NCBI GenBank assembly: GCA_026391695.1
Contig: JAPLDP010000024.1
Location: forward strand, 1 to 32,602
From: Bacteroidota bacterium
GTDB lineage: Bacteria; Bacteroidota; Bacteroidia; Bacteroidales; JAGONC01
Length of the DNA: 32,602 bases
Direction: 5' to 3'
The position numbers and the translations under genes are program-made. Positions 5,647 to 7,383 of this stretch are shown one piece after another (position 1 is the stretch's first letter; every line of letters starts with the position of its first letter). The notes under the pieces are model-generated. The model saw only the letters and a program-made list of their open reading frames with translations, searched no databases and was not told the origin of the DNA.

Positions 5647-7383
5647 ATGGAGAATTTTATTGTATCAGCCAGGAAATATCGTCCGGCAACCTTTGATACC
5701 GTTATCGGGCAGGGTTCAATAACCGTGACATTAAAAAATGCGATCAGGAACAACCAGCTTGCACAGGCTTTTCTGTTCTGCGGGCCACGGGGTGTCGGCA
5801 AAACCACCTGCGCACGTATCCTGGCAAAGACTATAAATTGTGAACATATCACCGAGAACATAGAGCCATGCAATACCTGCAAGCCCTGCTTGTCATTTAA
5901 TACAACCGCATCATTCAATATTCATGAGCTGGATGCAGCATCAAATAACTCGGTTGATGATATCCGCAACCTGGTCGACCAGGTGCGCATACCGCCGCAA
6001 ATTGGCAAATACAAGGTCTATATCATTGACGAAGTACACATGCTTTCACAGGCGGCTTTCAATGCTTTTCTGAAAACACTGGAGGAGCCGCCGTCTTATG
6101 CCAAGTTTATCCTGGCTACAACTGAAAAGCATAAAATCATCCCGACCATTCTGTCGCGCTGCCAGATTTTTGATTTTAAGCGGATCAGTGTCGAGGATAT
6201 CGCCGGTCAGCTGGCATTTGTCGCAAAAAATGAGGAGGTGACGGCCGATGAAGATGCCCTGCATATCATAGCCCAGAAGGCTGACGGCGCCATGCGCGAC
6301 GCCCTTTCGATGTTTGACCAGATCGTCAGCTTTGCCGGTAATGACCTGACTTATGAAACGGTCATCCGGAACCTTAATGTACTCGATTATGATTATTATT
6401 TCAGAATCGTCGATTCCATTCTGAATAGTGACATATCCGGTGCTTTACTCACACTTAATGAGATCATTGATAACGGTTTCGACAGCCAGCATTTCATCAC
6501 CGGTCTGGGGGAGCATCTGCGCGACCTGTTAGTTTGCGAGGATCCTGCCACCCTCAAACTGCTGGAGGTTGGCGCCAGCATCCGTTACCGCTATCATGAA
6601 CAGTCGGCCAGGTGTTCCGTTGACTTGCTTCTTAAGGCTCTGGATATCAATGGTAAAGCAGATATTAATTACAAAAGCAGCAACAATAAACGGTTACTCC
6701 TCGAGTTAGCTTTGATGCAGATGTGTTCTGTATTACGGTCCAAAGACTCCTCGATAAAAGATACAGATAGCCTCAGGAGCATACCACCGGCAAAAAAAGA
6801 AGATAAAGCCCCATCACACGCACCTGTGCCATCGCCTGACCAGGGAAAACAGGTCATTTCAGGCATTTCCAAACCGCCGGCGGTGACGGGCAATGGAACG
6901 ATAAAGTCTCCCATTAAGGGAACGGGCTTTTCCATCAAGGAAAGGATGGAAAACAATAAGTTAGCCATTACTAACCTGCAGAACAATCAAAATGGCTCTA
7001 CTGATCTTGTTGAGAAACTGGATACACCCTTCAGCCAGGAAGACCTTGAAAAGTCATGGAAAGATTTTTCAGATCCGCTGTCGGAAACTCATCCTATTCT
7101 TTACGCGACTCTTACACGGCGCAAGCCACAGCTGAAAGAGGATTTTGTGATTGAATTCGCCATTGATAATAAAGTTCAGGAAGATGAGATACGTAAGGCT
7201 GAGGTGCTGGCCCACCTGCGCCGGCAACTGCGGAATGACCTTATCCGGATGATCACGGTTCTGACTAACGATCAGCATGATCTGAAACCCTATACGCCCA
7301 TGGAGAAGTTTAAAAAGATGGCGGGGAAAAATCCGGATATCATCACTTTCAAAGAAAAGCTTGATCTGGAGATAGATTTTTAA
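5647..7383 (+). CDS. dnaX: DNA polymerase III subunits tau/gamma
   Basis: This is the clamp-loader ATPase of the replisome. The start at 5647 (MENFIVSARKYRP) matches the usual Bacteroidota N-terminus; an upstream in-frame TTG (5620) lies in the presumed promoter. Domains I-II show Walker A GPRGVGKT (46-53), four zinc-site cysteines (65, 75, 78, 81), Walker B with DEVH (128-131) and the SRC sensor motif (170-172). Domain III, the oligomerisation domain, runs to about residue 370. A Pro/Lys/Ser-rich linker then leads to a C-terminal domain of about 110 residues (from about 465) that should bind polymerase or helicase. Length is 578 residues, normal for tau. At the end of domain III lies an in-phase A AAA AAA slippery site (6792-6798) with a -1 stop at 6804. 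A gamma-like product of 386 residues is therefore possible. Confidence 0.95.
   Translation: MENFIVSARKYRPATFDTVIGQGSITVTLKNAIRNNQLAQAFLFCGPRGVGKTTCARILAKTINCEHITENIEPCNTCKPCLSFNTTASFNIHELDAASNNSVDDIRNLVDQVRIPPQIGKYKVYIIDEVHMLSQAAFNAFLKTLEEPPSYAKFILATTEKHKIIPTILSRCQIFDFKRISVEDIAGQLAFVAKNEEVTADEDALHIIAQKADGAMRDALSMFDQIVSFAGNDLTYETVIRNLNVLDYDYYFRIVDSILNSDISGALLTLNEIIDNGFDSQHFITGLGEHLRDLLVCEDPATLKLLEVGASIRYRYHEQSARCSVDLLLKALDINGKADINYKSSNNKRLLLELALMQMCSVLRSKDSSIKDTDSLRSIPPAKKEDKAPSHAPVPSPDQGKQVISGISKPPAVTGNGTIKSPIKGTGFSIKERMENNKLAITNLQNNQNGSTDLVEKLDTPFSQEDLEKSWKDFSDPLSETHPILYATLTRRKPQLKEDFVIEFAIDNKVQEDEIRKAEVLAHLRRQLRNDLIRMITVLTNDQHDLKPYTPMEKFKKMAGKNPDIITFKEKLDLEIDF
6775..6806 (+). promoter_or_regulatory. 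Candidate -1 frameshift site in dnaX
   Basis: AGGAG (6775-6779) is followed 12 nt later by A AAA AAA (6792-6798), phased so that the zero frame reads GCA AAA AAA GAA. A -1 slip reads AGA AGA TAA and ends at 6804-6806. This resembles E. coli dnaX (Shine-Dalgarno-like AGGGAG, A AAA AAG, stop soon after). No strong stem-loop starts directly downstream; the nearest candidate pairs GCCTGA with TCAGGC about 35 nt on. Transcriptional slippage on A7 is an alternative route. Confidence 0.45.

What the first reader, a model, noticed from the sequence alone, without database searches (positions are those of the whole stretch)
6775..6806. Possible programmed frameshift making a gamma-like DnaX
The heptamer A AAA AAA (6792-6798) is in exactly the phase needed for tandem -1 slippage on two Lys codons. 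AGGAG lies 12 nt upstream. The -1 frame stops after two codons (AGA AGA TAA). The site falls just after domain III, so the short product (about 386 residues) would keep the ATPase and oligomerisation domains and lose the tau tail, as in E. coli gamma. Two cautions apply. Bacteroidota ribosomes are known to sequester the anti-SD, so the AGGAG may not act. There is also no strong stem directly downstream, so transcriptional slippage (as in Thermus dnaX) is an alternative.
Basis: partly seen in the sequence, partly recalled or inferred. Interest (0 to 1): 0.6.

Follow-up and report, generated by a model that had tools for sequence, protein, structure and literature searches.

The report
Poly-A slippage site in Bacteroidota dnaX
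The seven-A run in this window's clamp-loader gene dnaX is probably not a programmed site, but many relatives carry a ten-A run in the same stretch, in part of them right behind an RNA hairpin, which looks built to make RNA polymerase slip and give two protein forms from one gene.

Summary
A programmed -1 frameshift is not supported for this gene: in the 75 codons after domain III none of 4 same-family genomes has a run over A6; codon shuffling gives a run of at least A7 in 28%; there is no hairpin and no near +1 stop. The comparison showed something larger. Of 273 distinct dnaX loci (not an even sample), 168 carry A9-A11 after domain III and 119 exactly A10, in all three phases. In 116 of the 168 tau is one open frame and both shifted frames usually stop at once; in 49 the zero frame stops and tau lies in a shifted frame. 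The 30 nt directly 5' of the run fold better than controls, mainly at that register; 3' there is no such signal. This fits transcriptional slippage (Thermus kind), helped in part of the loci by a nascent hairpin (Roseiflexus IS kind). The window's lineage probably lost or eroded the cassette. Split A10 dnaX is known (Antonov 2013); the breadth, the exact length and the 5' hairpin were not in the passages I read. No slippage was measured.

The parts
5647..7383 (+). dnaX, DNA polymerase III tau (full-length frame, 578 aa plus stop)
6792..6798 (+). A7, in-phase A_AAA_AAA; probably not a programmed site, possibly an eroded remnant of the A10 of relatives
   Evidence: sequence; family comparison; shuffles
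6775..6779 (+). AGGAG, Shine-Dalgarno-like letters 12 nt before the run; function not tested
   Evidence: AGGAG also occurs in the 200 nt after the anchor in 2 of 4 family members, with no heptamer
6804..6806 (+). TAA in the -1 frame, two codons after the heptamer
6762..6791 (+). 30 nt directly 5' of the run, where many A9-A11 relatives have a hairpin; here no stem abutting the run
   Evidence: z -0.34; stem score 0

Best explanation
(1) The window's A7 is most likely not a programmed frameshift site but an A-rich Lys stretch in a lineage that lost or eroded an older cassette. (2) In many other Bacteroidota dnaX genes the same linker carries that cassette: in part of the loci a nascent-RNA hairpin, then a run of A9-A11, mostly exactly A10, then stops within a few codons in the frames that do not lead to tau. 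Inferred mechanism: with RNA polymerase at the end of the A10 tract the whole RNA-DNA hybrid is A:T; it realigns on the tract, helped by the hairpin at its upstream edge, and mRNAs with extra or missing A's result. Ordinary translation gives tau from one class of mRNA and a gamma-like short DnaX from the others; where the zero frame itself is closed, tau needs slippage. Shown: run lengths, phases, stops, position-dependent folding, distribution. Inferred: the slippage itself, its rate, the two proteins, the role of the hairpin, and that the window's lineage lost the run rather than never had it.
For: Window: no run over A6 in the same 75 codons of 4 of 4 family members, chance-level A7, no hairpin, +1 frame open for 28 codons. 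Relatives, 273 distinct loci: A9 in 31, A10 in 119, A11 in 18; against few such runs elsewhere in the 239 loci first analysed: N-terminal part 1 A9 and 0 A10 in 247,317 nt, tau part 3 A9 and 6 A10 in 101,740 nt, flanks of 80 loci 14 runs of 9 and 4 of 10 (A or T) in 344,804 nt. Codon shuffles reproduce the run in an expected 3.6 of 116 single-frame loci. Among 119 A10 rows the phase changes at least 19 times on the tree. Stops in single-frame loci (n 115): median 2 codons in -1 and 3 in +1, against 9 and 13 at control places of the same genes; both within 6 codons in 85% against 11%. Split genes: 46 with tau in -1 and 3 in +1, of 168. Folding of the 30 nt 5' of the run: mean z -1.13 in 151 loci, -0.50 three nt and -0.02 six nt upstream, -0.19 directly downstream, -0.05 in 85 short-run loci; synonymous-codon control z -0.80 in 118 dissimilar loci, p 7.1e-8; stems of score 12 or more in 50 of 168 against 6.3% of 5640 control positions and 4 of 102 short-run loci.
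Against: No RNA or protein data. Every A10 also holds an in-phase A_AAA_AAA, so -1 ribosomal frameshifting is not excluded, and 46 of 49 split genes need the -1 direction. A clear stem is present in a minority (36% with z under -1.5; 50 of 168; only 3 of 31 A9 loci). Compensatory change was not found in the one clade tested: 0 of 8 pairs with a change on both sides, 76.4% of cells paired against 74.8% in shuffles. In the synonymous test a weaker signal also lies 30 nt upstream (z -0.38, p 0.005), and raw folding energies are lower than controls on both sides of short runs too, so only the shuffle-based tests count. For the window: heptamer plus near -1 stop has P 0.027 under codon shuffling, and Antonov 2013 lists one Chlorobium dnaX with only seven As, which a review calls a candidate with E. 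coli-like signals.
Confidence: 0.7

Rival explanations
1. E. coli-like programmed -1 ribosomal frameshifting at the window's A_AAA_AAA makes a 386-residue gamma.
For: In-phase heptamer, AGGAG 12 nt upstream, -1 stop after two codons; the combination has P 0.027 under codon shuffling; 11 of 24 comparable linker heptamers of short-run loci have a -1 stop within 2 codons against 18 of 70 in the tau region.
Confidence: 0.15
2. In the relatives the A10 acts on the ribosome (-1 frameshifting on iterated AAA) and not on RNA polymerase.
For: Each A10 contains A_AAA_AAA in phase; 46 of 49 split genes need the -1 direction. Insertion of one A by slippage gives the same direction.
Against: Seven As would suffice, yet 119 of 273 have exactly ten; early stops are also enriched in the +1 frame (median 3 against 13); 3 split genes need +1; the structure lies directly 5' and none 3', unlike the known dnaX ribosomal stimulators.
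Confidence: 0.12
3. The A10 runs are chance, sequencing indels or phase-variable tracts without programmed function.
For: Linkers are Lys-rich and homopolymers are error-prone and mutable.
Against: Lengths peak at exactly 10 and do not fall with length; codon shuffles expect 3.6 of 116; single-frame and split genes share the same length, which indel errors do not explain; stops in both frames and 5' folding.
Confidence: 0.03

Closest known systems
Thermus thermophilus dnaX transcriptional slippage on nine As (original paper not held; seen in passages of PMC1088944, and PMC5009743)
   Same: Gene, place after the clamp-loader part, long A-run, stops close by in both shifted frames, gamma-like short form predicted
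   Different: Relatives here mostly have exactly ten As, in part a 5' hairpin, and 49 of 168 have the closed zero frame; the window itself has only A7 and no near +1 stop
Split dnaX genes of Antonov 2013 (PMC3711429, passages)
   Same: Two adjacent frames, A10 in nine of 17, transcriptional realignment proposed, tau needs recoding
   Different: Here the single-frame form with the same A10 is commoner (116 against 49 of 168), a 5' hairpin is added, and the spread is much wider; their A10 genera are in a supplement I did not read
Stem-loop-dependent slippage in a Roseiflexus insertion sequence (passages and figure legend in the review PMC5009743; original not held)
   Same: Nascent RNA stem directly 5' of the slippery run
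   Different: There T5C5 and one-base deletion in a transposase gene; here a pure A-run in a cellular replication gene, stem in a part of the loci only and untested
E. coli dnaX -1 ribosomal frameshift (passages)
   Same: Place in the gene, in-phase A-rich heptamer, SD-like letters upstream, near -1 stop in the window
   Different: A_AAA_AAA not A_AAA_AAG, no downstream stem, not conserved in the family

Membership tests
E. coli-type dnaX -1 frameshift (window) | In-phase slippery heptamer with a -1 stop close behind | tested here: met
   P 0.027 under codon shuffling
E. coli-type dnaX -1 frameshift (window) | Upstream Shine-Dalgarno-like stimulator that pairs with 16S rRNA | tested here: inconclusive
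E. coli-type dnaX -1 frameshift (window) | Downstream stem-loop | tested here: not met
   6760-6900 z -0.48, 58 of 200 shuffles fold as well
E. coli-type dnaX -1 frameshift (window) | Conserved in close relatives | tested here: not met
   0 of 4 family members
Thermus-type dnaX slippage (window) | Run of about nine or more As with near stops in both shifted frames | tested here: not met
   A7; -1 stop at 2, +1 stop at 28 codons
Thermus-type dnaX slippage (relatives) | Run of nine or more As after the clamp-loader part | tested here: met
   171 of 273 loci, 168 of them A9-A11
Thermus-type dnaX slippage (relatives) | Near stops in both shifted frames | tested here: met
   both within 6 codons in 85% of 115 single-frame loci against 11% of control places
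Thermus-type dnaX slippage (relatives) | mRNA population with different A counts; two proteins | not testable with these tools
   no RNA or protein data on hand
Nascent stem-loop-stimulated slippage (relatives) | Stem-loop directly 5' of the run | tested here: met
   as a group tendency: z -1.13 in 151 loci, z -0.80 against synonymous recoding in 118, strong stems in 50 of 168; no covariation in one clade
Nascent stem-loop-stimulated slippage (relatives) | Slippage depends on the stem | not testable with these tools
   needs reporters
Split dnaX of Antonov 2013 (relatives) | Zero frame stops after the run and the tau tail lies in another frame | tested here: met
   49 of 168 A9-A11 loci, 46 in -1 and 3 in +1; part of these loci were picked for short frames

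The most novel reading that the evidence does not exclude
Bacteroidota dnaX is set by a transcription-level switch kept across the phylum: a nascent hairpin abutting an A tract of one RNA-DNA hybrid length, whose default product (tau or gamma) has flipped many times. Where the tract is lost, other recoding can take over, as in one Bacteroidales genus whose dnaX carries a conserved in-frame UAG at the gamma/tau junction and so appears to make tau by programmed stop readthrough.
Probability: 0.5. Interest if true: 0.75.

Novelty: new variant of a known kind. Interest (0 to 1): 0.5.

Why it matters
If true, making gamma and tau by RNA-polymerase slippage is widespread in a large and partly tractable phylum and not a Thermus curiosity. 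Run length, stem and default frame are natural variants that can be assayed directly, and the need for a gamma form could be tested where lineages have lost the run. It also warns that dnaX genes that look frameshifted may be intact. For the window alone the finding is ordinary.

Tried and rejected
-1 ribosomal frameshifting at the window's A7: rejected as best reading (no conservation, no stem). Downstream structure as a stimulator in relatives: no signal. Raw folding energies: 5' stretch lower than controls, but short-run loci also differ there, so shuffle-based and synonymous tests were used. Covariation of the 5' hairpin in 9 loci of one spacing group: negative; I left out L078 (same 33 letters as L069) and L065 (other spacing) and the remaining loci of that spacing. 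Near -1 stops after in-phase heptamers in short-run linkers: suggestive at most, several loci are near-duplicates. An alignable remnant of A10 at the window's A7: linkers align poorly, undecided. Genome-wide UAG reassignment in the TAG genus: not favoured, since 2 of 17 of these dnaX genes themselves end in TAG. A second place with the TAG motif in each of 6 genomes: unrelated genes; in 5 of 6 an open frame reads across it in another frame, in L324 no frame is open. A common hairpin after the TAG: alignment A2 has shifting registers; I did not test it further.

Dropped before the 273: L002-L005 (no dnaX) and 14 near-duplicates. Loci from L292 on are not in the 273. Searches used the 239 loci before de-duplication. 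3 of 168 A9-A11 loci have unresolved architecture and 3 loci have A12 or A13.

Full report
WHAT IS IN THE WINDOW. The gene is dnaX, 5647-7383, 578 aa. The +1 frame stays open for 28 codons. The RNA around the site folds no better than shuffles (z -0.48), and no stem abuts the run on its 5' side (z -0.34). AAAAAAA matches are common in this DNA (30 against 22.9 +/- 6.0). Shuffled linker codons give a run of at least A7 in 28%, an in-phase heptamer in 22%, and a heptamer with a near -1 stop in 2.7%.

Of the genus only the window's own genome is held. In the 4 other genomes of the family the longest A-run in the 75 codons after domain III is A4, A4, A4 and A6, and the -1 frame after it stays open for 11 to 31 codons. 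L008 has an A7 further on, at codon 443, with a -1 stop 9 codons away. In the smallest well-supported clade beyond the family (16 rows, local support 94), 4 of 16 have A9 or A10, each with a -1 stop within 6 and a +1 stop within 14 codons. Parsimony with the run present at the root puts a loss well before the window's lineage, which would make those four runs regains; repeated later loss is as possible, since the root state is ambiguous, the outgroup was not monophyletic and many branches are weak. So 'lost or eroded' is inference.

THE LARGER PATTERN. I compared dnaX loci of the family, order, class and phylum groups and of named genome contigs. After dropping 4 loci without dnaX and 14 near-duplicates, 273 remained. 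The longest A-run in the 75 codons after domain III is A10 in 119, A9 in 31, A11 in 18, A12 or A13 in 3, A8 in 4 and A7 or less in 98. A9-A11 is found in 0 of 4 (family), 30 of 92 (order), 69 of 76 (class), 60 of 80 (named, Bacteroidota by title) and 9 of 20 (phylum, mostly outside the class). Elsewhere in the same loci such runs are few: 1 A9 and 0 A10 in 247,317 nt of N-terminal part, 3 A9 and 6 A10 in 101,740 nt of tau part, and 14 runs of 9 and 4 of 10 (A or T) in 344,804 nt of flanks. Codon shuffling reproduces the observed run in an expected 3.6 of 116 single-frame loci. On a FastTree tree of 273 N-terminal parts the phase of the A10 run changes at least 19 times and its distance from domain III at least 66 times; presence of a run of nine or more changes at least 34 times, against a mean of 81 (lowest 74) in 50 label shuffles. 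Length is held while frame and place drift. Length is not fixed: 9, 10 and 11 change into one another at least 40 times on that tree.

FRAMES. Of 168 A9-A11 loci 116 are single-frame, 46 split with tau in the -1 frame, 3 split with tau in the +1 frame, 3 unresolved. Architecture changes at least 25 times. In single-frame loci (n 115) the -1 stop follows at median 2 codons and the +1 stop at median 3, against 9 and 13 at control places of the same genes; both within 6 codons in 85% against 11%. Early +1 stops are expected if mRNAs of several lengths exist; -1 ribosomal frameshifting alone would not call for them.

THE HAIRPIN. The 30 nt ending at the run fold better than dinucleotide shuffles: mean z -1.13 over 151 loci, 36% under -1.5. 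The mean is -0.50 three nt further upstream, -0.02 six nt upstream and -0.19 directly downstream; loci with short runs give -0.05. Against synonymous recoding, in 118 loci with dissimilar upstream sequence, z is -0.80 (p 7.1e-8); short-run loci give -0.06, and 0.00 at matched distances. In that test there is also a weaker signal 30 nt upstream (-0.38, p 0.005) and a slight opposite one at 12 nt (+0.22). Strong stems ending within 3 nt of the run are found in 50 of 168 loci (40 of 119 with A10, 7 of 18 with A11, 3 of 31 with A9), in 6.3% of 5640 control positions and in 4 of 102 short-run loci. Compensatory change was not found in the one group of 9 loci tested. The hairpin is a feature of part of the loci.

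MECHANISM. Passages of the review PMC5009743 give the precedents: slippage at the nine-A/T run of Thermus dnaX, and slippage in a Roseiflexus insertion sequence that depends on a nascent stem-loop directly 5' of the motif; they give a 9-10 bp RNA-DNA hybrid for Thermus RNA polymerase. An A10 tract would fill that hybrid and a hairpin abutting it would sit at the hybrid's upstream edge. This joins length, register and both-frame stops. It is inference: no RNA or protein was measured.

WHAT IS KNOWN. Antonov 2013 (PMC3711429, passages) reported 17 split dnaX genes, nine with A10, and suggested transcriptional realignment; one Chlorobium case has only seven As, and the review calls it a candidate with E. 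coli-like signals, which speaks a little for A7 sites. The genera of the nine are in a supplement I did not read. My searches (listings, abstracts' beginnings, and passages of five papers) showed no report of a Bacteroidota-wide run or of a 5' hairpin in dnaX. The original Thermus and Roseiflexus papers are not held, so this is not proof of absence.

A SECOND ROUTE, SEEN IN PASSING. In one Bacteroidales-level genus group, 14 of 14 genomes have a single in-frame TAG in dnaX; 0 of the 65 matches of other genera of that family have one. With three named loci, 17 of 17 read TAGATWGCNAGR there, with the frame open for 186 to 254 codons after it. Two of the 17 genes end in TAG, so TAG still stops there. 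This looks like programmed stop readthrough at the gamma/tau junction and deserves its own study.

VERDICT. Window: observation right, programmed A7 unlikely. Gene family: a widespread A10 slippage cassette, a new variant of a known kind.

Noticed in passing
L050, L053, L060, L244, L292-L294, L297, L300-L305, L309, L310, L313: dnaX of one genus group (14 of 14 genomes) plus three named loci has no long A-run but one in-frame TAG at the gamma/tau junction, followed by conserved ATW GCN AGR and 186-254 open codons in the same frame (17 of 17): candidate programmed UAG readthrough.
   Followed up: partly
L028, L031, L046, L049, L071, L082, L084: Several named Bacteroidales loci (for example Bacteroidaceae and Bacteroides by title) have no A-run over A4 in the linker: the cassette seems lost there; how or whether they make a gamma form is open.
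   Followed up: no
L087, L200, L205: Split dnaX genes whose tau tail lies in the +1 frame after A10 or A11, against 46 with -1.
   Followed up: no
L064, L110 (A13) and L040 (A12): Rare longer runs at the same place; L064 is split, L110 and L040 are open in the zero frame.
   Followed up: no
G010, G038, G060, G129, G139 and others: 14 of 295 order genomes show no dnaX match at E 1e-60, some of them over 90% complete; assembly gap or divergent gene not examined.
   Followed up: no
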